Source: a virus
Strand: one strand, 5' to 3'
IMG/VR virus record: IMGVR_UViG_3300044568_005513
Coordinates: 1-32,582 of that record
DNA length: 32,582 bases
How positions within the stretch are numbered: the stretch's first letter is position 1; each line of letters starts with the position of its first letter. Below, one piece after another: positions 1 through 22,291 of this stretch. Position numbers and translations under genes: made by a program. Below the pieces are notes generated by a model. That model saw only the letters and a program-made list of their open reading frames with translations. It was not told the DNA's origin and did no database searches.

Positions 1-643
1 TGCAAAAAACAATGCGATTGTTTGCAATTTTTACATACAATTCTTCATTGGTTGTTTTGATTGTATCACTTGCTGCATAATCAAATGCTTGAATATCTTC
101 ATTGTAAGCATATTGATAAAATTGACTGTACTTTTTTAAATGAGCATACTTGTCAGCATTATATTCTTGCTGAACTATGAATGGTGCATTGTTGCCGCTA
201 ACTGCCAATGCAATGGTGTATCCATTGGCACTCAATGCATTGTATGTCTGCCAAGAATTGAATCTATAAATTACAAACTTGTTGTTGATGCTGGATGTTT
301 CAAAATTTAAATCTGCAGCAGACAACACAATGCTGTCTTGCAGAAAATTATAGACAGTAACTTTTTGTGTGAAGATGTCATAATATGATTCACCCTGGCC
401 ATCATACAAATACAGTGAAACAGTGTATTCACCCGGCAGATCATAAACATGTGTTGCAGTTATGCTCTTGGATGTAGTTCCATCACCAAAATCCCACAAA
501 ACTCTTTTGTTGGAAAACAATGATTCATCATATTGTGGCTTAAAAGTAAATGGAGCTATGCTCAAAGCATAGCCAGATGTTGCAAATTCATTGGTAAAAT
601 TTACAACATCAAAGTATGCATAGCTGTATTTAACTTGACTCAT
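1..643 (-). CDS. PKD-domain structural protein, partial (continues past the left edge)
   Basis: The frame is open from an ATG at 643 to the window edge, giving 214 residues of the N-terminal part. The ATG overlaps the gp6 stop as ATGA, so the gene is the next member of the gp25-gp6 operon. Residues 50-56 read WDFGDGT and are followed by HVYDLPGEYTVSLYLYDGQG (65-84), the classic core of a PKD (immunoglobulin-like) domain. Such domains are common in surface-exposed virion proteins that bind other proteins or glycans. In T4, gene 7 (a baseplate wedge protein) follows gene 6, so a peripheral wedge or tail-decorating protein is plausible by position. No gp7 similarity can be claimed from sequence. 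The C-terminus lies outside the window. Confidence 0.8.
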   Translation of the reverse strand, partial: MSQVKYSYAYFDVVNFTNEFATSGYALSIAPFTFKPQYDESLFSNKRVLWDFGDGTTSKSITATHVYDLPGEYTVSLYLYDGQGESYYDIFTQKVTVYNFLQDSIVLSAADLNFETSSINNKFVIYRFNSWQTYNALSANGYTIALAVSGNNAPFIVQQEYNADKYAHLKKYSQFYQYAYNEDIQAFDYAASDTIKTTNEELYVKIANNRIVFC

Positions 644-2451
644 ATAACCATTATTTTGCTGGATAGTTTGTTGCTATCAATTAAGAAAGGATACTTGAAA
701 GAAGGTAAAGCTATGTTTTGTGATGTGATGGACACATCCTCAACACTGTACAATGGATTCCATAGCACAAAGCTCACACCAGGTGTTTCAATATTCTTGT
801 CAATGCGCTTTGTAAAGATTTTTTCCACACCAGCAATGGCTAATAAATCTTTGGTGAGTGCAAAAAAGTCTAATGTCATTCCCAATTTCATTTTGTTGAT
901 GTCAAAGAAATTGAGCAGTGCATCAAGAGCATTGGCTTTGATTTGACTTGATGTGATCTTGCTGTTTTGTGCGCGCTGTATCACAAGCACGCTCTTTTCT
1001 CTCAAGTCAACACTGGCAGGCTCATCAAAAGCTGCAACGGCAACATCTACAGCAATGTAAACTGGATCACTTGGCACTAATTCTGTGCTTTGCATTTGCA
1101 AGCTCTGCATTTGATTGACAATCAACTGCTTGAGATTTGTTGAAAGTGTTTGAGGTATGCTGTTTTGCACCACAAAATTGCGAGGCACAACAAACATATA
1201 CACATTGTTAAAATCACATGCATCTGCAAAAGAAACTTGATTCAACAGCACTCTGGTATCATCATTGGGCTGATTCAATCCAAGATCATAAAAGTATTTC
1301 ATGTATGCATTGATGTAGTCTGAATTGCTGATGGTCTTAACATCACGAATTAAATTTGCAAAGTTGCGTTTTGCAAAGGCATCAAAGTCACCTGTTGTAA
1401 CTGCACGATTTTGAGCAGAAAAAATGCGCGGAGCATTTTCTCTTATTTCTTGCACTGTTTCTAGTGATTTGGGGTCAGTTGATTTGTTGGTGTTGGTGAT
1501 GAAAACAGCATTGAGCTGATCTTGCGTAGCAATGGGATCAGTTGCTTCATAAATATTGGAAGAAATTTCTCTAAATCGAGGTGTAGTAAATCTTACCAAG
1601 GCTGCATCATTGATGGCTTGTGCAGCAATGACACCTTGTGAGCCATTGCTTTGCAAATAATACACTGCAACAAGATCATTAGCATTGAGCTTTTTGCCAT
1701 TGATATCATCACCAAACTTGAGCTCATATCTTCCTGCATCATTCAAACGCTTTTCAAAAGACTTGGGATTGGTTTGCTCATTAAAAAGAGATTCAACCAA
1801 ATTCCACTCACTCCACAATTGTGTTGTTGCATCTTTGACAAACACAAAAATATTGCTGTAATCTACAAACGAATCAGCATTTGTTACAATGCTTTCAATG
1901 GCCATTGTAATGATTTCAAATGGAGCACCTGCTGCTGTTTGTGTTGGGTATTCACGAAATTGTCCTTGATACAACAAATTTTGACTGTCAATTGATTGCA
2001 AATCTTCTGCACCATTGGTTGTTTTTTCAAAGTAAATGTCATTTGATACAGAATAAAATACTCCATTGGCTGTAACAAAAGAAAATCTTGGAATTATGTA
2101 GTTGCCAGCTGCCAAACCAGCACCAGCAGCAGCATCAAAGGATGCAATTGAAGTTTGTGAACCAAGAGGATTGTATCCAATGAGGTTAACAAGTTTATTC
2201 ATGTTTTCAAGCAAAGCAGATTGTGAAAAATAAGATTCTGCAGCCTGATTGTTCAAATAAAACAATGAAACGTGGTAGGAATACGCAATGATGTCAATGA
2301 TTGCAGAAAGATTGCTGCCTTCAAATGCTTGATCAGTAAACACATTGGATGTTTTGAGTCTTTGAATTATGAGACTCTTGAGACTAGTTGCATCAAATGC
2401 AGCATATGCATCTTTTGGTAAGTTGAACTCTGTAAAATTTTGTGCAGACAT
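640..2451 (-). CDS. gp6: Baseplate wedge protein gp6-like
   Basis: A protein of 603 residues, close to T4 gp6 (about 660). The N-terminus (about 10-100) has the family signature: AYAAFDATSLKSLIIQRL, then GSNLSAIIDIIAYSYHVSLF, then ENMNKLVNLIGYNPLGSQTS. T4 gp6 dimers form the inner ring of the baseplate and link the wedges around the hub, and the family is related to gpJ-type baseplate proteins. The ATG lies two bases after the gp25 stop (TAATTATG) with no late box of its own, so it is expected to be co-transcribed and translationally coupled with gp25. Its stop overlaps the start of the PKD-protein gene. The adjacent gp25-gp6 order matches many contractile-tail systems. Identification is firm. 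Confidence 0.93.
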   Translation of the reverse strand: MSAQNFTEFNLPKDAYAAFDATSLKSLIIQRLKTSNVFTDQAFEGSNLSAIIDIIAYSYHVSLFYLNNQAAESYFSQSALLENMNKLVNLIGYNPLGSQTSIASFDAAAGAGLAAGNYIIPRFSFVTANGVFYSVSNDIYFEKTTNGAEDLQSIDSQNLLYQGQFREYPTQTAAGAPFEIITMAIESIVTNADSFVDYSNIFVFVKDATTQLWSEWNLVESLFNEQTNPKSFEKRLNDAGRYELKFGDDINGKKLNANDLVAVYYLQSNGSQGVIAAQAINDAALVRFTTPRFREISSNIYEATDPIATQDQLNAVFITNTNKSTDPKSLETVQEIRENAPRIFSAQNRAVTTGDFDAFAKRNFANLIRDVKTISNSDYINAYMKYFYDLGLNQPNDDTRVLLNQVSFADACDFNNVYMFVVPRNFVVQNSIPQTLSTNLKQLIVNQMQSLQMQSTELVPSDPVYIAVDVAVAAFDEPASVDLREKSVLVIQRAQNSKITSSQIKANALDALLNFFDINKMKLGMTLDFFALTKDLLAIAGVEKIFTKRIDKNIETPGVSFVLWNPLYSVEDVSITSQNIALPSFKYPFLIDSNKLSSKIMVI

Positions 2452-2453
2452 AA

Positions 2454-2933
2454 TTATGTAAAGGTGGCATAGCCTTGGCTGTTGAGATTAATGCTAAGAT
2501 TTAATTTAGCATCATTTTGCAGAAAAGGTACACCAACAGTCATATTTATCGTATACTGCTGATTATCATAATCAGGTATTACTTGTATAGAAATGATGCT
2601 GACTCTGGGTTCAAACACAGAAATATTGCGCTCTATGGTTGTTCTAATCAAGGATGCAACAGAATCAGATGCTGGCATGAACAAATAATCCCTCAAATCC
2701 ATGCCAAATTCTGGATTTAAAATTTTATCTCCTGGGCTTGTCAAGAATAAATTGACGATGCTGTTGCGAATAGCACCTAAATCATAATCTGCAGCTATGT
2801 CTTGCTGCTGAGCTTGTTTTGCAGCTTCATTGGTTATGAGTTGCTGCAATTTCAAATCTAAATGCAAATCAGAATAGGTGTATCCACTATCTGATTTGTT
2901 TGTTTTTGGAAATACTATGTTTACATTGCCCAC
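2454..2933 (-). CDS. gp25: Baseplate wedge protein gp25-like (GPW/gp25 family)
   Basis: A protein of 159 residues with the gp25/GPW core: GAIRNSIVNLFLTSPGDKIL, then NPEFGMDLRDYLF, then an FEPRV motif near residue 110. In T4, gp25 sits at the sheath-baseplate junction and nucleates sheath assembly by donating its handshake strands. The start is GTG at 2933. There is no in-frame ATG, and an in-frame TGA lies a few codons upstream. The late box TTAAATA (2939-2945) lies exactly five bases before this GTG, which supports the choice. The gene is divergent from the plus-strand gene at 2971, with 37 bases between the two starts. gp6 follows after two bases. Confidence 0.92.
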   Translation of the reverse strand: MGNVNIVFPKTNKSDSGYTYSDLHLDLKLQQLITNEAAKQAQQQDIAADYDLGAIRNSIVNLFLTSPGDKILNPEFGMDLRDYLFMPASDSVASLIRTTIERNISVFEPRVSIISIQVIPDYDNQQYTINMTVGVPFLQNDAKLNLSINLNSQGYATFT

Positions 2934-2938
2934 ATCAT

Positions 2939-2945
2939 TATTTAA
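2939..2945 (-). promoter_or_regulatory. Late promoter box of gp25
   Basis: TTAAATA on the minus strand, five bases (ATGAT) before the GTG start at 2933. In T4 the box occupies -13 to -6, which puts +1 on the G of GTG. It is paired back-to-back with the plus-strand box at 2958. Confidence 0.7.
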
Positions 2946-2957
2946 TCACCTGTTAGC

Positions 2958-2964
2958 ATAAATA
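2958..2964 (+). promoter_or_regulatory. Late promoter box of the 191-residue protein
   Basis: ATAAATA, six bases before the ATG at 2971. It fires away from the gp25 promoter in the same 37-base gap. Confidence 0.72.
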
Positions 2965-2970
2965 ATTGCA

Positions 2971-3546
2971 ATGAAAAGTAAATACCTTAGCTTACTAGAA
3001 AACACTCTTACACGCTACCAAAGAGGTGGGTTTCTTGTGGGAGACTACATCAAATTTGCTGATGATTATAAGTCTAAGCCATGCTACAAAGATTTAGCTG
3101 CACAAATCAAAGATGCAGTTGCAGAAGTTGTAGAGCTGTCCAAAAACATGAACTTGCGTGTCATTTCCATTAAAAATGAATATCCATCCAGTGCACCTGG
3201 CAATGAATTCAACACCAATGGCAATGTTGTGATTGATGTTGGTTTGGATTATGGTGGTGGTCGCTTCTACAATGTTGTTACTGTTCCATGTGATGTGCTT
3301 ACAAGATTAGATTATGGTGTGAATTATGCACCACTTCCACAAGCAATTGTTCGTCCTAATCAAATTACACTCAAACCAGAATTGGTTAAAATTGATGGTG
3401 ACACTGAAACATATCGCCAAACACGCACAGCAGATCAAGATGGCAAAGACAAGGATGTTGAGACTGAGCTTGATGATGAGCATGTCAAGATTCCTGCAAG
3501 CTCAGCAAAAAGCTCAGTTGGTGCATACTTGAAATATCTCAAGTAA
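2971..3546 (+). CDS. Conserved-looking protein of unknown function
   Basis: A soluble 191-residue protein that I do not recognise. The N-terminal half (1-75) looks helical and includes RYQRGGFLVGDYIKFADDY. A middle segment rich in Gly and Val (NVVIDVGLDYGGGRFYNVVTV, split around residue 95) looks like beta structure. The tail from about 140 is polar and charged (many D, E, K) and probably flexible. A late box six bases before the ATG groups it with virion or assembly genes rather than with the early genes beside it. It sits divergently next to gp25 and converges on the clamp-loader gene, with an 8-base overlap of their 3' ends and no terminator. No signal peptide or membrane segment is visible. 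Confidence 0.75.
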   Translation: MKSKYLSLLENTLTRYQRGGFLVGDYIKFADDYKSKPCYKDLAAQIKDAVAEVVELSKNMNLRVISIKNEYPSSAPGNEFNTNGNVVIDVGLDYGGGRFYNVVTVPCDVLTRLDYGVNYAPLPQAIVRPNQITLKPELVKIDGDTETYRQTRTADQDGKDKDVETELDDEHVKIPASSAKSSVGAYLKYLK

Positions 3547-4468
3547 CATTCAAGAGATTCAAGCAGCAGTGAAATGCATTGATTTCTTGATCCATTACAA
3601 AGCTTGATCTATACATGTGTTCAGCAATGATGCAAATCATCATTTGTTTTTTCTGTTCTTCAACTGAAGATGAATACAATGCATTGAGCAGGCTTTTCAT
3701 GAGTGCAGCATAATCATTGCAAAAATCCTCTTCATTGTTGATGAGAAACTGACGAATTAGTTTGCAGTCCTGCTTGCTTATAATCATTTGAAGCAATTCA
3801 TTGCTTGTTTCATCAATGCAATTGGCAAAATAGATGAACTTGCCTGTTGCACACATGCGCTGCAAGTGACCAATGATGCGTCTCACATCTGGATACGTGC
3901 TTTTGATTGCTTGCAACAAGCCCTGCTTGTCATCTTCTGCAATGGTTATGTTTTCTTGCTTGAGAACTTGGGTGCAACGCTTTACAACATCAAGCATTGA
4001 ACTTTCTATTTGAATGCTTTGACAACGGCTCTGCAGCGCAGGAATAATGCGATGCAATTGATTGGCTGTGATGATGAAACGAGTATATCTAGCATACTCC
4101 TCCATGATGTTGCGCAGAGCACGCTGACCAGCTTCTGAAAAGCCATCAGCTTCATCAAGTACAATGATCTTGATGCCGCCATCCAAACTTTTTGTTTGGG
4201 CGAAGTTGGTGATTTTGCTTCGCACTGTATCAATGCCATTTTCATCTGAAGCATTGATGTAGAGAAACTGACACTTGAGCAAATCATTGATGATGACTCG
4301 TGCAAGTGTTGTTTTACCAATGCCTGGACGACCAGCCAGCAGCAAATTGGGAATTTCACCCTTGCTGGTGTATGTCTTGATGAGACTTTTGATACTCTCA
4401 TCAAGACACATTTCATCCAATGTTTTGGGTCTGTATTTTTCGATCCAAAGACCTTGTAAATTGAGCAT
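3539..4468 (-). CDS. gp44: Sliding-clamp loader ATPase, gp44-like
   Basis: A protein of 309 residues, close to T4 gp44 (319). It has an N-terminal EKYRPKTLDEM box, Walker A GRPGIGKTT (46-54), Walker B IIVLDEAD (101-108), a sensor-1 region FIITAN (131-136) and the SRC motif at 147-149. These define an RFC small-subunit/gp44 AAA+ protein. It loads the ring-shaped clamp (gp45 in T4) onto primer-template DNA as a complex with gp62. No gp62 or gp45 gene lies in the window. The ATG directly follows AATAAAT, which sits too close for the late spacing seen elsewhere. The gene follows the 30-residue basic ORF, whose stop lies three bases upstream. It belongs to an early-type island inside late genes and is confidently assigned. 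Confidence 0.94.
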   Translation of the reverse strand: MLNLQGLWIEKYRPKTLDEMCLDESIKSLIKTYTSKGEIPNLLLAGRPGIGKTTLARVIINDLLKCQFLYINASDENGIDTVRSKITNFAQTKSLDGGIKIIVLDEADGFSEAGQRALRNIMEEYARYTRFIITANQLHRIIPALQSRCQSIQIESSMLDVVKRCTQVLKQENITIAEDDKQGLLQAIKSTYPDVRRIIGHLQRMCATGKFIYFANCIDETSNELLQMIISKQDCKLIRQFLINNEEDFCNDYAALMKSLLNALYSSSVEEQKKQMMICIIAEHMYRSSFVMDQEINAFHCCLNLLNVT

Positions 4469-4470
4469 AT

Positions 4471-4563
4471 TTATTTTTTTACACGCTTGGTGGTGACTGT
4501 AACCGTTTTGCGGATGCGCACACCTTTGCGAATTATTTCTTTAACTTTTTGAATTTTAGCCAT
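4471..4563 (-). CDS. Small basic peptide (30 residues), hypothetical
   Basis: An ATG at 4563 opens a 30-residue frame ending at the TAA at 4471. The peptide is very basic (MAKIQKVKEIIRKGVRIRKT, followed by TVTVTTKRVKK). It starts 22 bases after the dUTPase stop and ends two bases before the clamp-loader ATG (TAAATATG), so it fills the gap between the two and could couple their translation. The dense Lys/Arg pattern suggests nucleic-acid binding, but that is inference. No Shine-Dalgarno or late box precedes it. It could be a chance frame; its exact fit between the two genes is the main argument for it. Confidence 0.42.
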   Translation of the reverse strand: MAKIQKVKEIIRKGVRIRKTVTVTTKRVKK

Positions 4564-4585
4564 GTGTTGATTTGTGTTGTTAAAA

Positions 4586-5107
4586 TTACTTGCCAGAAGA
4601 ACCAAAACCATTTTCACCGCGATCAGATTCTGCAGTTTGTTCTGCAAATTTAACTTTGTTGGCACTAATCAGATGATACAGCACAAATTGTGCAATGCGA
4701 TCACCTTTCTTGACTTGATAATCTTTGTCTGTGAGATTGTAAAGCTTGATGCCAGCATCACCACGATATCCACAATCAATGATGCCAGGATGCGGTAAAA
4801 TACCATGCTTAAAGCCCAGTCCGCTGCGACCTTCAACTTTGATCCAGTAAAGCTTGGGAATATATGCAAATTTTAAACCAACATCAACAACTGCAGAGCC
4901 ACGAGCCGGAATGAGTTTATCCTCCACACAAAATACATCATATCCAGTATCAGATGCATTGTTCTTTGCAGGCAATTGAGCATCTTCATGAGTCTTGACG
5001 AAGCTCAAGCTGTAATAATCATCAAGAATATTGGAAAGATTGTTAACTTCATTGGATGCAATTGTAATATTAGAATCAGTTTCGTTCATATGCATAAGAT
5101 AATGCAT
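4586..5107 (-). CDS. dut: dUTPase (deoxyuridine 5'-triphosphate nucleotidohydrolase)
   Basis: A protein of 173 residues of the trimeric dUTPase family, which converts dUTP to dUMP and pyrophosphate, keeping uracil out of DNA and feeding dTMP synthesis. All five motifs are visible: I (SDTGYDVF, 52-59), II (GRSGLGFKHGI, 93-103), III (PGIIDCGYRGD, 107-117), IV (KKGDRIAQFVL, 133-143) and V (RGENGFGSSGK, 163-173). About 35 extra residues precede the usual start. The frame has in-frame ATGs at residues 1, 5 and 7, so the exact start is uncertain. No late box precedes it. The only purine-rich patch near the ATG is AAGGGC. It is divergent from the plus-strand gene at 5145. Confidence 0.95.
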   Translation of the reverse strand: MHYLMHMNETDSNITIASNEVNNLSNILDDYYSLSFVKTHEDAQLPAKNNASDTGYDVFCVEDKLIPARGSAVVDVGLKFAYIPKLYWIKVEGRSGLGFKHGILPHPGIIDCGYRGDAGIKLYNLTDKDYQVKKGDRIAQFVLYHLISANKVKFAEQTAESDRGENGFGSSGK

Positions 5108-5131
5108 GCCCTTGTTTTCTCAACTATTCTC

Positions 5132-5138
5132 CTAAATA
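5132..5138 (+). promoter_or_regulatory. Late promoter box of the possible small terminase
   Basis: CTAAATA, six bases before the ATG at 5145, in the 37-base gap between the divergent dUTPase and small-terminase-like genes. Confidence 0.68.
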
Positions 5139-5144
5139 AAAATA

Positions 5145-5603
5145 ATGCAACAAGATGATACGCAAGAAGCAGTCAACAATATTTTGAACCAGCTCAAAAC
5201 TTTTGATGCTCCCAAGCAGGTAATTCAGCATCAGCCACCAGCACCAGAAGAGCTGGAGCAATTCATCATTGACAAATCTAGTGAACTCATCAACAAAAGC
5301 TTGCAAGTGTTGGATGAATACAGAGATTTTTTAACTGCAACACCATCAGAAGAATCAGCAGAAGCAATGTCAAATTTAATCAATGCTTCATCATCTGCCA
5401 TTGAATCACTCAACAAAGTACTGGCTGCTAACAAGCGCGCAGCAACCTCCATCAAAGTAAAAGAGATGGAAATTAAAGCTCGCATTGACAACAACAAGCG
5501 TGACAATGCTACAAAGCTCATGATGACTCGCGGTGAATTGATGCAAATGCTCATGGATGCACCAGAAGCAATTGAGGTAGAAACTCAAAAAGTTGACAAT
5601 TAA
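5145..5603 (+). CDS. Possible terminase small subunit (gp16-like)
   Basis: A protein of 152 residues, close to T4 gp16 (164). The N-terminus is polar with a Pro-rich patch (HQPPAPEELE). Residues about 58-120 look like one long helical region with a coiled-coil pattern (NLINASSSAIESLNKVL, then KVKEMEIKARIDNNKRD), and a short ELMQMLMD helix follows. T4 gp16 has the same order: a central coiled coil that builds the recognition ring, and a late helix near the C-terminus. The resemblance is in architecture and local pattern, not in diagnostic residues, so the call is moderate. Another helical virion or scaffold protein is possible. It is late-promoted and converges on the gene at 5600-7141 with a 4-base overlap. 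Confidence 0.5.
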   Translation: MQQDDTQEAVNNILNQLKTFDAPKQVIQHQPPAPEELEQFIIDKSSELINKSLQVLDEYRDFLTATPSEESAEAMSNLINASSSAIESLNKVLAANKRAATSIKVKEMEIKARIDNNKRDNATKLMMTRGELMQMLMDAPEAIEVETQKVDN

Positions 5604-5609
5604 TCAACT
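5591..5609. terminator. Weak inverted repeat between convergent genes
   Basis: AGTTGA and TCAACT (6 bp, 7-base loop) span the overlapping stop codons of the two convergent genes. There is no U-run, so any termination would be inefficient. Noted as a possible transcript end only. Confidence 0.25.
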
Positions 5610-7141
5610 GCTACACCACTAACGTATCGTTGCGGTTGAACATAACCTGCAGGTGGTCCATTGGCTTTGGTGATGGTTGTTACAGCACTATCTAATCCAG
5701 GTGCTCTTCCCACAGGAGAATAAAAATCAACTCTGCCAGTGAGATAATTTGCTGTTCTATCATCAAAGCGTTTTGCAAATATTCTGCCATCAGATGTTTG
5801 AACATTCACCCAATCGCCTAATTTTATGCCACTTGCTCTCATTTGCGCTTCAACATCTGGTGATGCAGCCATGGAATAATCTTTCAACAAATAATTGCCG
5901 CCCTTTAATCCAGCAGGTCCTTTGCCAGCCTCTCCAATGCCACCAGCACCAATGCCATTCAAGGAGTTGCTATCTTTGTTTGGATCATTGGCTTGCCCAT
6001 AATCTGTAATTCTTGATCCATCAACATTAGCTTTGCCATTGGCTGGTTGATTTTGTTCATTGTTGGTATTAATGTTTTGTGATTGAGCTTCAGTTTCTTT
6101 TTTGCCAGTTTTTGGATATCTATTCCAGTTTTGGTCATCATCCCAATCATATCTGCTTTCAGTGTAATCAAGAAAGTCTTTGATGGAGAGATAAAACGGC
6201 TTGACAGGTGGTGTTTTCAACTTGCCAAAGACGTTGAGCTCATAATTAGATCCTTCTGATGTTACATTGATGGTGGCATTGGTAGCAACAGCCATGTTCA
6301 TGTTTGCATCCAATGGATTGTATCTGTATTTGAATTCATGCAATCTAAAGCAATCATTCAAAGAGCTTTTGGCACGAGCAAGCAAATTGCTTGCATTGTT
6401 TTGCGTTTGAAAGTATGGAAAAGGATCTGTAGCAAAATAGCCACCATGAGGAATAAAGCTCATGCTCTTGCCTTGTTGCAGCAAGGATGTTTCTGTCTGC
6501 ACCCGATTGCTATTAAAAAGCGGCTCAGTGGCTTTTGCAACAATGTTTTTTGTGGCAGTAGCAACACTGGCAAGCAATTGCTGTGCAACAACTGATATTT
6601 TATTGAATGTAGCTCCAGCAATGTTGAGAGGTGCATGCAATAAACTTGATGCTCCATCCCATGCAGGTGCAACATTGCCGGTGTTTTGTTGCATAGCATT
6701 GGCAAGCAGTGCAACAACATCACCAATGGGCTTGAAATAATTGCATGGACCACCACATTGATTCAAAAGGTTTGCAAGTTTGCTTGGAAAGCTATCATCA
6801 TTTGGTGATCTGCGTTGATTAGCTGCAACAAATGCATCATCTATTTCTCTAATGAGTGGATCAACCATCTGTGGAGGCAAACTCAACACTCTATCCACGT
6901 GCATTTGCAGTGTTTGTGCATCCAATTGATTGCCAAGCAAAATTATATCTTGCATGTATGTTCTCAATGCATTGATGGGTGCAGCAGATTGTTCAAAATT
7001 CTTGTTATCAAATGATAGTCTATAATCTGCACTCAAAGCATTTGTAAAAGCACACAAGTTTGTATTCCTTTGTACAAATGTTGGACTATACAATGCTGTT
7101 GCATCAACAAGTTGAGGGGCTGTTGTTTTAATTAAAATCAT
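5600..7141 (-). CDS. Baseplate/hub-region structural protein, unrecognised
   Basis: A protein of 513 residues. The first 300 residues are mixed helical segments with Ala/Asn-rich stretches. Residues about 345-400 are a low-complexity linker rich in Asn, Gln, Asp and Gly, followed by a Gly-rich patch (GIGAGGIGEAGKGPAGLKGG). The last 90 residues look like a compact beta domain containing KLGDWVNVQTSDGRIFAKRF and then LTGRVDFYSPVGRAPG. The start ATG overlaps the hub-gene stop as ATGA, so the two are translationally coupled and probably work together. By position it may be a hub-associated or needle-like protein (the place of gp5 in T4), but I see no lysozyme or spike repeat. Function is not assigned. 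Confidence 0.6.
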   Translation of the reverse strand: MILIKTTAPQLVDATALYSPTFVQRNTNLCAFTNALSADYRLSFDNKNFEQSAAPINALRTYMQDIILLGNQLDAQTLQMHVDRVLSLPPQMVDPLIREIDDAFVAANQRRSPNDDSFPSKLANLLNQCGGPCNYFKPIGDVVALLANAMQQNTGNVAPAWDGASSLLHAPLNIAGATFNKISVVAQQLLASVATATKNIVAKATEPLFNSNRVQTETSLLQQGKSMSFIPHGGYFATDPFPYFQTQNNASNLLARAKSSLNDCFRLHEFKYRYNPLDANMNMAVATNATINVTSEGSNYELNVFGKLKTPPVKPFYLSIKDFLDYTESRYDWDDDQNWNRYPKTGKKETEAQSQNINTNNEQNQPANGKANVDGSRITDYGQANDPNKDSNSLNGIGAGGIGEAGKGPAGLKGGNYLLKDYSMAASPDVEAQMRASGIKLGDWVNVQTSDGRIFAKRFDDRTANYLTGRVDFYSPVGRAPGLDSAVTTITKANGPPAGYVQPQRYVSGVAVD

Positions 7142-19303: not shown

Positions 19304-19310
19304 TATTTAT
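19304..19310 (-). promoter_or_regulatory. Late promoter box of the tube gene; decides the start
   Basis: ATAAATA (TATAAATA with the preceding T), spacer GCAAC before the ATG at 19298. The TAA stop of the terminase nuclease half (19307-19309) lies inside the box. Confidence 0.8.
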
Positions 19311-20560
19311 AAGAACTCCCAACCTTGTAGTTCCATATCAGCCAAATCATCATCTTTGCTTGTTGTGGAACCAAACGCAATGGGCATCGTTGCTGAATCT
19401 TTGTATTGTTCTGCTGTCATCATTTCAAGCCAGGCTCCTGGTGAATTTATGAGGCGATCTTTTTTTGTAAAATAAGTGAGGCCAAAATCCATGGGTTTGA
19501 GCTTGCTGGGCTTGCCATTATCATCTGTTTCCTCCACCTCAAAGTATTGATTGCATATGCCAAATTGCTTGTCATTGTCTAGAATTATCAATGCCCACAC
19601 CAATGCCATGACACAGTCATCTGTACCATTGCCGCGAGCACTCCATGTGCCGTTGGGCTTGCGTACAAAATCTTTGAGTTCTATGAGTGTATTCATGTCA
19701 TTGAATTTAACACATTTGAGCACATTCACCCAATACCTCATGTTGAGTACACCACGTTGCTTGGTGTTGGTGTGTGCAATTACACCCAAGAATTCTTTTT
19801 TGCGGCCAGCCAATTCAGCACCATAACTCACAATGTTTTCGTAATTGTGGTTGGCTCTCAAGTTTTCCACCACAATTTGACCGCAACTGTTGCGCTCAAC
19901 CAACACAAGTGGTTTGCCCCATTGTGTCAATACTTCATTTAACTTGACAGTAAACTGAGCTGGTGCAATTGCATTGTCTCTGTAAATGGCCACTTGTTCA
20001 ATGTTGGTCAAATCAGTTACATCCAAAATTTGTATCACTGAATAGTTTTGTCCTACACCTTCAGCCACATCAACGCCAGCTATGTATATGCGATCTTCTT
20101 CTGGACTTTTCCAAATCTTGTATGATTCACCATCCAGCATAATTTCTGGATCGCTGCAATATTTTTTGAGTTTTTCAAAAGTTTCAATGTCAATGGATGA
20201 TTCGCCTTTGTGATGAAATACGCAGTTGTGAGAGAGCAGATCATTGGTATAATACATATACTCACCTTCAACATCTATTAGATCATACAAATCTACAAAT
20301 CCAATGTCTATTTTTTCTTGCAGCGTAAAAATCTTGTTGCTACTGCCTAGAACTTTATCACCCACATTTAAGTCAGATGCTTTAATAAACGTCTTTGTAA
20401 CGAAATTTGTGCAGAGTGGGTGATTTTTTGAACACTTTAAATCAGTTCCGTTGAATTTTAAATGAACTGAATCTTTATGGATTTTCTGTATTCCATAAAA
20501 GCTTTTATACCCCAGGGGCGTGAGGACTTTTAAGTTTTGTGTATTTAGTTTAAAGCTCAT
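19307..20560 (-). CDS. terL: Terminase large subunit, C-terminal half: intein C-part plus nuclease domain
   Basis: 417 residues. The first 112 are an intein C-part: block B-like CSKNHP near 43-48, block F around FVDLYDLIDVEGEYMYYTND, and block G LLSHN followed by Cys113 as the +1 residue. The remaining 305 residues are the C-terminal nuclease domain of a T4-type large terminase, with acidic motifs IYIAGVDVAEG, LVLVERNSCG and TDDCVMALVWAL in the RNase H-like arrangement (D, E, D) of gp17. It cuts concatemeric DNA during packaging. The start ATG overlaps the endonuclease stop by 11 bases. It is not functional alone; trans-splicing to the ATPase half is expected. A proper late box is missing (only CAAATA, seven bases upstream), so translation is probably coupled. 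Confidence 0.93.
   Translation of the reverse strand: MSFKLNTQNLKVLTPLGYKSFYGIQKIHKDSVHLKFNGTDLKCSKNHPLCTNFVTKTFIKASDLNVGDKVLGSSNKIFTLQEKIDIGFVDLYDLIDVEGEYMYYTNDLLSHNCVFHHKGESSIDIETFEKLKKYCSDPEIMLDGESYKIWKSPEEDRIYIAGVDVAEGVGQNYSVIQILDVTDLTNIEQVAIYRDNAIAPAQFTVKLNEVLTQWGKPLVLVERNSCGQIVVENLRANHNYENIVSYGAELAGRKKEFLGVIAHTNTKQRGVLNMRYWVNVLKCVKFNDMNTLIELKDFVRKPNGTWSARGNGTDDCVMALVWALIILDNDKQFGICNQYFEVEETDDNGKPSKLKPMDFGLTYFTKKDRLINSPGAWLEMMTAEQYKDSATMPIAFGSTTSKDDDLADMELQGWEFL
20225..20560 (-). other. Intein C-part of the split terminase intein (112 residues)
   Basis: Encodes residues 1-112 of the nuclease-half protein. It ends with Ser-His-Asn, the penultimate His and final Asn needed for Asn cyclisation, and the next codon (20224-20222) is Cys, the +1 nucleophile. 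Because it also contains the block B region (SKNH, with Ser in place of the usual Thr), the split lies much earlier than in normal split inteins. No endonuclease domain is inserted. Confidence 0.9.
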
Positions 20561-21362
20561 GAGTTTCTATTTGGAGTGTATCATCCCAAATTACAATGAA
20601 TTTGCATTTTAAATATTTATGCAATATTTTTCTGCGCTTCTCATCCTTTTCCTTGTAATATTTTTTTCTGTGATGTGGTTCATTAACTTCATATACTGTA
20701 TTTGTTTCACTGCAATAACCATCAGGAAAAAAGTTTAAAACCTTAAAATCTCTTTGAATTGATATGTTATTATCCATTTCAATCTTATCTAAAATATCCT
20801 TTTCATTTTTGCCACGAGTTATGCAGCCTTTTATATTATGCTCTCTGAATTTTCTTTCACCATCAGCACCAAATTTATTGATGAAGTGCGGCTTTGTTGT
20901 GCCTACTAATCTACAACCCATGCAGTATAATTTTGTCCAGTCTTGTGTTTGTGGATCAAAAGTAAATTTAGAACCACAAATGCAAAGCATATCCTCATCA
21001 ACAACAAAATTATTTATTGCAATATCCATTCTACATACAAATGGTATGCTGCGGGAGTAAAAATTGCTAAAATCATTAGTATAATGTATTAATGATTTAT
21101 ATACTTGTAAGTTATCTCGTTTAAGTTTGCGATTACCGGCACGACCTCTGTAACTATCGTAATTGTTGGTGATAAAATTGGTTACCTCATGCTTTTCAAC
21201 CAAAGAGCAATTGTTAATTTTTTGCTTTTCTTTTTCATAAAATTCAACCGCGGTATTTTTATGCACAGCAGATATACCGCACTCTCCATACTTTTGCAGT
21301 ATTGTATTTTTTCGTTTTTTTAATGATTTAGCAAGTTTTATAGGATTTTGCATATAGTGCAT
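20550..21362 (-). CDS. Free-standing homing endonuclease, Vsr-like (EDxHD-type), between the terminase halves
   Basis: A protein of 270 residues from the ATG at 21362. The N-terminus (KLAKSLKKRKNTILQKYGEC) resembles DNA-binding segments of phage homing enzymes. C127, C129, C147 and C150 (CICG and CMGC) form a likely zinc ribbon. The C-terminal catalytic region has FPDGY (Asp214), YEVNEPHH (Glu225, Glu228, His230/231) and KEKDEKRR (Asp240), the layout of the Vsr-like EDxHD family described in fractured split-intein genes. It would cut intein-free terminase alleles and promote copying of the cassette. An in-frame ATG at 21434 lies inside the ATPase-half gene. I prefer 21362 because a late box lies exactly five bases before it. 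The stop overlaps the next gene's ATG. Confidence 0.85.
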   Translation of the reverse strand: MHYMQNPIKLAKSLKKRKNTILQKYGECGISAVHKNTAVEFYEKEKQKINNCSLVEKHEVTNFITNNYDSYRGRAGNRKLKRDNLQVYKSLIHYTNDFSNFYSRSIPFVCRMDIAINNFVVDEDMLCICGSKFTFDPQTQDWTKLYCMGCRLVGTTKPHFINKFGADGERKFREHNIKGCITRGKNEKDILDKIEMDNNISIQRDFKVLNFFPDGYCSETNTVYEVNEPHHRKKYYKEKDEKRRKILHKYLKCKFIVIWDDTLQIETHEL

Positions 21363-21367
21363 ATGAG

Positions 21368-21374
21368 TATTTAT
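21368..21374 (-). promoter_or_regulatory. Late promoter box of the homing endonuclease gene
   Basis: ATAAATA with spacer CTCAT before the ATG at 21362. Its first two bases are the end of the 3' arm of the hairpin at 21373-21411, so transcripts from here would lack the hairpin. Confidence 0.72.
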
Positions 21375-21411
21375 CTTTACAAGAGTATTATTTACATACT
21401 CTTGTAAAGAT
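21373..21411. repeat. Perfect 15-bp inverted repeat at the break in the terminase gene
   Basis: Arms ATCTTTACAAGAGTA (21373-21387) and TACTCTTGTAAAGAT (21397-21411) with a 9-base loop. The right arm encodes the last codons of the intein N-part, and the TAA stop (21392-21394) is in the loop. The left arm touches the endonuclease late promoter. There is no U-run after it on either strand, so it is not a standard terminator. Read-through RNA from the terminase gene would carry the hairpin just upstream of the endonuclease start. Confidence 0.9.
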
Positions 21412-22291
21412 CCTCCATATTTATTTGCATGCAACTGCTTCTATCTTTTTGTATATTAAGCAGAGTGTCGCCGTGACATGATTCATATTCTTGCAAAAAG
21501 GCCTCAATGCTGCCAATTTGTTTGATTTGACTTTGTTTCCACTTTTCATCTCGGCCTGGCACAGCATCCCATTTGATGGTCATGGTGCTAAAGTCATTTT
21601 GGCTTTTTATTGCTCCATCATACAGCTGATAGAACAAATTGTCTGTTCCATTGGGAGTAGATGCAATCAATACTTTGGATGTTTTGGAGCGAGAAATTGT
21701 GGGCCACACAGAACGCCAAAAATCTTCCATGATGGATGGAGGATCAATGAAAGCCAACTCATCCAGCAGCAAAACGTTGAGGGATTGACCACGAGCAGCA
21801 GATCCGGTGGTGGTGGAAATGCCAACACGAGATCCATTGTCTAAGGTCATGCTGGTTTTACCATATTCTTGCACACCAGGCTTGAGCCAGTTGGGCAACT
21901 GCTCATATGCAAGTCGCACTCTTCTGAATATTTCAATGGCTGTGCTTTCTTTGTTTGCAACAATGAGAATATTTTGATCTTGATTGAAGCATGCTACCCA
22001 CAGTGCATATATGCAAAGCAATGTTGTTTTGCCCAACTGTCTAGATGTCAGCAGAATATTGTAGCGATTGTCTCGCAGCATTCTTAGTGCATCTTTTTGG
22101 TATTTGTACAACTCAATTATGACACGCCCCTTGTCTGGATCAATGATGTAAAAATAATTTTCAGCAAAAAACAATAAATTCTGTGCGCACTTTTTTAAAT
22201 CACGCACCATTTGCGGTGTATATTCATATTCTGCTGTGCTGGTGGGCAGATTTGGGTTGTTGAGATAAAACTCTCTACTTTTTGATGGCAT
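21392..22291 (-). CDS. terL: Terminase large subunit, N-terminal half: ATPase domain plus short intein N-part
   Basis: 299 residues. The first 271 are the packaging-motor ATPase of a T4-type large terminase: Walker A SRQLGKTT (83-90), Walker B NVLLLDELA (172-180) and coupling motif STPNG (211-215). Instead of continuing into the nuclease domain, the protein switches after QEYES (267-271) to Cys272-HGDTLL, an intein block A, and stops 28 residues later after EDLYKSM. The junction aligns with the FRQEH region of gp17, between its ATPase and nuclease domains. Splicing to the second half would give 271+305=576 residues (T4 gp17 has 610). A GTAAATA box lies seven bases before the ATG. The gene is divergent from the acidic protein at 22327. 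Confidence 0.94.
   Translation of the reverse strand: MPSKSREFYLNNPNLPTSTAEYEYTPQMVRDLKKCAQNLLFFAENYFYIIDPDKGRVIIELYKYQKDALRMLRDNRYNILLTSRQLGKTTLLCIYALWVACFNQDQNILIVANKESTAIEIFRRVRLAYEQLPNWLKPGVQEYGKTSMTLDNGSRVGISTTTGSAARGQSLNVLLLDELAFIDPPSIMEDFWRSVWPTISRSKTSKVLIASTPNGTDNLFYQLYDGAIKSQNDFSTMTIKWDAVPGRDEKWKQSQIKQIGSIEAFLQEYESCHGDTLLNIQKDRSSCMQINMEDLYKSM
21395..21478 (-). other. Intein N-part of the split terminase intein (28 residues)
   Basis: Encodes Cys272 to Met299 of the ATPase-half protein. CHGDTLL matches intein block A (Cys1, then Asp-Thr). The end, INMEDLYKSM, is close to the short N-part of the AceL-TerL intein as I recall it, which also ends around EDLYK. Normal split inteins have an N-part of about 90-120 residues, so this is an atypical, very early split. 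Confidence 0.88.

What the first reader, a model, noticed from the sequence alone, without database searches (positions are those of the whole stretch)
20225..21478. Large terminase encoded in two pieces joined by an atypically split intein
The ATPase half ends with a 28-residue intein N-part (Cys, then HGDTLL, ending EDLYKSM). The nuclease half starts with a 112-residue C-part ending Ser-His-Asn before Cys. Normal split inteins have N-parts near 100 residues. The few known ones split this early include AceL-TerL, also in a phage terminase. Splicing would give a 576-residue terminase with all ATPase and nuclease motifs. Very short N-parts are prized because few exist, and this sequence looks clearly distinct from AceL-TerL as I recall it.
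Basis: partly seen in the sequence, partly recalled or inferred. Interest (0 to 1): 0.92.

Follow-up and report, generated by a model that had tools for sequence, protein, structure and literature searches.

The report
Phage terminase rejoined by split intein
A virus's DNA-packaging motor is encoded in two pieces that a self-splicing protein element most likely rejoins, with a DNA-cutting (homing) gene sitting in the gap; it is a new member of the known AceL/GOS-TerL family, notable for a rare serine-first chemistry and for near-identical viruses that lack the element.

Summary
The split is real. The intein C-part (112 aa) matches the solved Cat intein, engineered from AceL/GOS-TerL (E 3.6e-20; ~49% identity; best Foldseek hit 6dsl, then VidaL). 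It is a new member of that family, and the layout is not rare: 70 IMG/VR loci and several cultured phages carry relatives.

The finding's splice site is one residue off. A near-identical phage (L003) has an uninterrupted 575-aa TerL reading EYE|CVF; the window reads EYE-S-C-H-G-D-T. This empty site and an ungapped alignment to CatN both put Ser at position 1. So the N-part is 29 aa, and splicing gives 575 aa, nine substitutions from L003, no indel. Ser1/Cys+1 was reported as first seen in GOS-TerL; all 61 comparable complete relatives are Cys1.

Near-identical empty alleles differ by 10 substitutions in 28 nt at this site (P<2e-4), as expected of an attacked homing site. The nuclease gene has a late-promoter-like box and a 16-bp hairpin (z -7.2), resembling I-TevI control. 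Splicing and cleavage are untested.

The parts
21482..22291 (-). TerL N-extein, 270 aa, ATPase domain (Walker A SRQLGKT, Walker B LLLDELAF, STPNG)
   Evidence: PF03237 E 7.7e-16; motifs; identical protein sequence to L003 over residues 1-270
21395..21481 (-). Intein N-part, 29 aa, SCHGDTLLNIQKDRSSCMQINMEDLYKSM, Ser1 then Cys2; stop codon 21394-21392
   Evidence: Empty-site comparison; ungapped alignment to CatN of 6dsl; same start in L006
21373..21411 (-). Perfect 16-bp inverted repeat (arms 21373-21388 and 21396-21411, 7-nt loop) spanning the end of the N-part; predicted RNA fold extends over the nuclease start codon
   Evidence: (z -7.16, 0 of 200 shuffles)
21368..21374 (-). ATAAATA box (reads GATAAATA), late-promoter-like, 5 nt before the nuclease ATG
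   Evidence: same box class (CTATAAATA) at this place in L006
20550..21362 (-). Nuclease-like ORF, 270 aa, in the gap between the halves; probable homing endonuclease of the DUF559/Vsr-like (PD-(D/E)XK/EDxHD) kind with a Cys-rich (zinc-finger-like) segment
   Evidence: Sub-threshold DUF559 match at the same place in window and L006; motif PDGYC..YEVNEPHHRKKYYKEKD conserved; few nonsynonymous relative to synonymous changes against L006 (dN 0.29, dS saturated)
20225..20560 (-). Intein C-part, 112 aa, ending SHN; its ATG overlaps the nuclease stop by 11 nt
   Evidence: CatC of 6dsl E 3.6e-20; AlphaFold pLDDT 90.5, Foldseek best hit 6dsl, then VidaL 6vgv
19307..20224 (-). TerL C-extein, 305 aa starting Cys+1, nuclease domain (DVAEG, ERNS, DDCVM)
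   Evidence: PF17289 E 6.9e-8; motifs

Best explanation
This is a mobile, atypically (S2-type) split class 1 intein of the AceL/GOS-TerL family that has invaded the terminase gene of a T4-like phage. TerL-N with a 29-aa N-part and TerL-C with a 112-aa C-part are made separately. The parts associate into a HINT fold, and Ser1 makes an oxoester. Cys+1 takes over the N-extein, Asn112 cyclises, and the exteins are joined as a 575-aa terminase identical at the junction to the uninterrupted allele. The gene in the gap is a homing endonuclease that cuts intein-less terL alleles at the EYE|C site so that the whole N-part/nuclease/C-part block is copied in. Its expression is probably limited to late infection by a late-promoter box and a hairpin. 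Shown here: anatomy, homology, fold of the C-part, empty sites, local divergence at the site. Inferred: trans-splicing, Ser1 chemistry, nuclease activity and its regulation.
For: Two-ORF TerL with both domains. C-part homologous to CatC and folds as HINT with 6dsl first and VidaL second. N-part aligns ungapped to CatN with Ser at residue 1. A near-identical phage, L003, has the uninterrupted 575-aa TerL, and the predicted spliced protein differs from it by 9 substitutions and no indel, with residues 1-308 identical. A second member, L006, keeps Ser1, the 29-aa N-part, the nuclease and the C-part. Empty alleles L003 and L004 differ by 10 substitutions in 28 nt exactly at the insertion site, with no other difference from -71 to +119, and L002 has a further 12-nt deletion there. 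Relatives in 70 IMG/VR loci have the same layout, 56 with a GIY-YIG nuclease ORF in the gap. PX29 is annotated in GenBank with a putative N-intein and an endonuclease plus C-intein.
Against: No splicing data. The nuclease assignment rests on sub-threshold DUF559 matches, and its AlphaFold model failed (pLDDT 32.7). Ser1/Cys+1 is energetically uphill and is reported to inactivate the homologue AceL-TerL (PMC11766414), so Cys2 acting as the nucleophile cannot be excluded without mutants. All sequences here are metagenomic contigs.
Confidence: 0.85

Rival explanations
1. One reading: Cys is residue 1, the N-part is 28 aa, Ser stays in the product, giving a 576-aa TerL with one extra residue.
For: Cys1 is the commonest intein residue 1, and all 61 comparable complete relatives here have Cys1/Cys+1. 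Cys is present next to Ser.
Against: The empty allele lacks the Ser codon. Every family member keeps two residues between residue 1 and the G(D/E/K)T motif in this subgroup (C-L-S-G-D-T, S-C-H-G-D-T). CatN aligns without a gap to Ser.
Confidence: 0.1
2. The two halves work as a two-subunit terminase without splicing, and the intein parts are decayed leftovers.
For: No splicing data; ATPase and nuclease domains lie in separate polypeptides.
Against: Catalytic positions (residue 1, block B CSxNH, HN, Cys+1) are kept in window and L006 at 68% identity and across the family. Changes between window and L006 in the C-part are 41 synonymous against 36 nonsynonymous codons. The predicted fold is intact.
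Confidence: 0.05
3. An assembly artefact or a frameshifted ordinary maxi-intein rather than a true split intein.
For: Single metagenomic record; three overlapping ORFs in one operon.
Against: L006 has the same three-ORF layout with 63-68% identity. The nuclease sits after the first helix, not at the canonical endonuclease insertion point. The same layout recurs in dozens of contigs and in cultured phages.
Confidence: 0.02
4. The ORF in the gap is not a homing endonuclease but another phage gene (for example a regulator) that happened to land there.
For: No confident family match; no relative but L006 found in IMG/VR or 84,980 genomes.
Against: The same gap holds GIY-YIG, SegE-type, DUF559, TnsA/endonuclease I-like and DUF7487 proteins in relatives. 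The window and L006 proteins share the sub-threshold DUF559 match and a conserved D..E.N..HH..D pattern. The insertion site shows localised divergence.
Confidence: 0.12

Closest known systems
GOS-TerL split intein
   Same: Phage terminase, early split, short N-part (37 aa) and long C-part (115 aa), Ser1/Cys+1 (properties from PMC11766414)
   Different: Its sequence could not be obtained here, so identity is not measured. The window has Cys directly after Ser1, a shorter N-part (29 aa), and DUF559-like nuclease in the gap
AceL-TerL split intein and engineered Cat (PDB 6dsl)
   Same: Same insertion motif (E|C), same split after the first helix, homologous parts: CatC E 3.6e-20 and 49% identity, CatN E 0.0017
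   Different: Ser1 instead of Cys1; C-part 112 instead of 104 aa with an 8-residue longer middle; own branch with L006 (96/98 support)
TerL split inteins of cultured phages (Aeromonas PX29, Providencia PSTRCR_127, Serratia 92A1, Vibrio EniLVp02 and 1.244.A, Va1)
   Same: Same gene, same or nearly the same insertion site, N-part/(nuclease)/C-part order
   Different: Cys1; mostly GIY-YIG nucleases, sometimes fused to one intein part; 24-35% identity in the C-part
Fractured genes (split intein with Vsr-like homing endonuclease in the gap; Dassa et al. 2009, from own knowledge, paper not held)
   Same: Host gene broken by N-part, free nuclease gene, C-part
   Different: Best-known examples there are canonically split; early split here
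VidaL split intein (PDB 6vgv)
   Same: HINT fold, short natural N-part; second Foldseek hit
   Different: 16-aa N-part, split after strand 2 (S1 site; PMC13014065); 21% identity

Membership tests
AceL/GOS-TerL family of atypically split inteins | Sequence homology of both intein parts to Cat/AceL-TerL | tested here: met
   CatC E 3.6e-20; CatN E 0.0017
AceL/GOS-TerL family of atypically split inteins | Natural split after the first helix with an N-part of about 25-37 aa | tested here: met
   29-aa N-part ending in the MEDLYKSM helix, aligned to the end of CatN
AceL/GOS-TerL family of atypically split inteins | Inserted in the phage large terminase | tested here: met
   PF03237 and PF17289 on the two halves
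AceL/GOS-TerL family of atypically split inteins | Trans-splicing activity | not testable with these tools
   Needs co-expression
Class 1 intein | Residue 1 Cys or Ser, block B His, penultimate His and terminal Asn, Cys/Ser/Thr at +1 | tested here: met
   Ser1, CSKNH, SHN, Cys+1
Ser1/Cys+1 inteins (as GOS-TerL) | Ser is the catalytic residue 1 | tested here: met
   By sequence only: empty site and CatN alignment; the chemistry itself is not tested
Fractured-gene arrangement | Free-standing homing endonuclease gene between the two intein-bearing halves | tested here: inconclusive
   A 270-aa ORF is there, DUF559-like below threshold; nuclease activity not tested
Fractured-gene arrangement | Mobile: closely related alleles lack it at the exact site | tested here: met
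   L003, L004, L002 lack it
EDxHD/Vsr-like homing endonucleases | Fold and catalytic residues of that nuclease family | tested here: inconclusive
   Motif resemblance only; AlphaFold model unusable (pLDDT 32.7); no PDB sequence match

The most novel reading that the evidence does not exclude
The split point of TerL inteins is a shared landing pad for unrelated homing nucleases whose cassettes carry I-TevI-like control. In the GIY-YIG group the cassette starts with a copy of the terL homing half-site directly joined to a TATAAATA late promoter, while the window group has a hairpin plus late box. The window intein is a second, independent natural Ser1/Cys+1 intein, and phages escape it by rewriting the homing site.
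Probability: 0.35. Interest if true: 0.72.

Novelty: new member of a known kind. Interest (0 to 1): 0.55.

Why it matters
Short N-parts can be made as peptides, so new early-split inteins are useful for protein labelling, and a natural Ser1/Cys+1 intein is a test case for an energetically unfavourable splicing step reported for GOS-TerL only. The near-identical phages with empty, rewritten and occupied sites make it possible to test directly how a split intein spreads and how phages evade it. The survey shows that such inteins are common in marine T4-like viruses rather than curiosities, which gives a large natural library.

Tried and rejected
AlphaFold of the nuclease failed for lack of relatives, so no fold search was made with it. 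Scans of IMG/VR and of 84,980 genomes for nuclease relatives gave only L006. A DNA pattern for QE(Y/F)ES..GDT in IMG/VR gave only L006 plus two unrelated reading frames, so no further Ser1 members were found that way; this pattern misses AGY serines and non-QE contexts. The window was tested for a copy of its homing site at the nuclease's 5' end as in the GIY-YIG group: the best match (TTTACAAGAGTATG against N-extein TTTGCAAGAATATG) did not exceed the shuffles (score 10, shuffle maximum 11), so I do not claim it. The strong hairpin is not conserved in L006 (z -1.8) nor in the GIY-YIG group, so it is a feature of this phage only. The primary papers on GOS-TerL, Cat and fractured genes are not held; the GOS-TerL sequence could not be compared.

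Full report
What is there. The record is a 32.6-kb virus contig of a T4-like phage (TerL closest to cyanophages, a Pelagibacter phage and Ochrobactrum phage ORM_20 at 41-42%). On the minus strand the terminase gene is broken into three overlapping or abutting ORFs: 22291-21392, 21362-20550 and 20560-19307. The outer two carry the TerL ATPase and nuclease domains (PF03237, PF17289). Its stop overlaps the start of the third ORF by 11 nt.

Intein identity. The joined intein parts match the engineered Cat intein of PDB 6dsl, made from AceL/GOS-TerL: C-part E 3.6e-20, N-part E 0.0017. C-part identity to CatC is 49%, to L006 68%. AlphaFold with 25 window and IMG/VR sequences gave pLDDT 90.5, and Foldseek returned 6dsl first (E 1.7e-8) and VidaL second. 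So it is a member of the AceL/GOS-TerL family. In a tree it forms its own branch with L006, outside the Cat/marine cluster.

Splice site. L003 is a phage 96-98% identical in DNA around terL with an uninterrupted 575-aa TerL. Its sequence reads GAA TGC GTG (E|CV) where the window reads GAA TCA TGT CAC GGC ... CAC AAC TGC GTA. The inserted block therefore begins with TCA, serine. Independently, phmmer aligns EYE-S-CHGDT to EFE-A-LSGDT of CatN without a gap, the Ala being the mutated residue 1, and the subfamily spacing C-x-x-G-D-T becomes S-C-H-G-D-T. Hence Ser1, a 29-aa N-part and a 575-aa product that differs from L003's natural protein by nine substitutions and no indel, with residues 1-308 identical. 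L006 has the same Ser1-Cys2 start. Every other member with both junctions readable is Cys1/Cys+1, 61 of 61. A 2025 review calls GOS-TerL the first Ser1/Cys+1 intein and reports that this pair inactivates AceL-TerL (PMC11766414).

How common. An alignment of C-parts found 70 IMG/VR loci. Those with a readable N-half have N-parts of about 28-37 aa; 56 have a GIY-YIG ORF in a gap of about 550-590 nt, and L059, L070, L079 and L081 have no nuclease. Cultured phages PX29, PSTRCR_127, 92A1, EniLVp02, 1.244.A and Va1 carry split inteins at about the same site. Thanatos-2, kaaroe and JK32 carry one at the Walker B motif instead. PX29 was deposited with notes of a putative N-intein and C-intein. Gap proteins belong to several nuclease families: GIY-YIG, SegE-type GIY-YIG, TnsA/endonuclease I-like, DUF559, DUF7487.

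Mobility. Among nearly identical phages there are at least three states: occupied (window), empty with the same flanks (L003), and empty with a rewritten site (L004, and L002 with 12 more nt missing). L003 and L004 differ at 77 positions of 1725, 10 of them within 28 nt at the insertion site, and none from -71 to -22 or from +7 to +119; random placement never reached 10 in a window of that size in 5000 trials. This is what cutting at, or escape from, a homing nuclease would leave; drift or recombination with a distant allele over that short stretch is an alternative. L002 and L004 also carry a different, contiguous intein at Walker A.

Control of the gap gene. The nuclease ATG (21362) follows GATAAATA by 5 nt. 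ATAAATA occurs 22 times in the window against 9.5 expected, and 13 of the 22 lie 5-7 nt before a start codon, so it is this phage's gene-start or late-promoter signal. Just before it is a perfect 16-bp inverted repeat, and the predicted RNA fold covers the start codon region (-30 kcal/mol, z -7.16). In T4, I-TevI is controlled by a hairpin hiding the start and a late promoter placed so that late transcripts lack the hairpin (PMC2988022). The resemblance is a lead; the hairpin is not shared by L006.

Mechanism and status. Shown: gene order, homology, fold of the C-part, exact empty site, local divergence at the site. Inferred: association, Ser1-initiated class 1 trans-splicing, nuclease activity, late-only expression. 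What it works like and what it is agree here: it is filed as a new member of the AceL/GOS-TerL family, with splicing activity untested.

Noticed in passing
L017-L085 GIY-YIG members, just after the intein N-part stop: The nuclease cassette begins with a copy of the terL insertion half-site (GAATGTGAGTTTTTTGGA, encoding E|CEFFG) joined to TATAAATA; the match lies in the same register in nearly all members, including the divergent L080, and L050 reads it in frame (..DECEFLGL). It is absent in nuclease-free L059, L079, L081. It resembles the I-TevI operator/late promoter.
   Followed up: partly
L078 (327-kb contig), 1-7092: TerL appears broken twice by two split inteins (Walker B site and the E|C site), so three pieces and two trans-splicing events would be needed; read by eye.
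   Followed up: partly
L010 (Campylobacter phage CP21), 606-4913: TerL appears to hold three inteins: contiguous at Walker A, split in the middle with a nuclease-like ORF, and a contiguous one at Walker B only 8 residues later; read by eye.
   Followed up: no
L002 and L004, terL Walker A (GK^T): Near-identical phages carry a contiguous ~347-aa intein starting with Ala at Walker A, absent in L003 and the window.
   Followed up: no
window, 13 sites such as 18694-18688, 15749-15743, 14858-14852, 12023-12017, 10092-10086: ATAAATA sits 5-7 nt (mostly exactly 5) before start codons; if it is a T4-type late promoter the mRNAs would be nearly leaderless.
   Followed up: partly
L059, end of intein N-part to C-part (gap of 6 nt): Bare split intein without nuclease whose parts are otherwise like the GIY-YIG members, suggesting loss of the nuclease with the split kept.
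   Followed up: no
L004, 10032-11867: A 611-aa ORF that looks nuclease-like lies after the tail sheath gene in this near relative.
   Followed up: no
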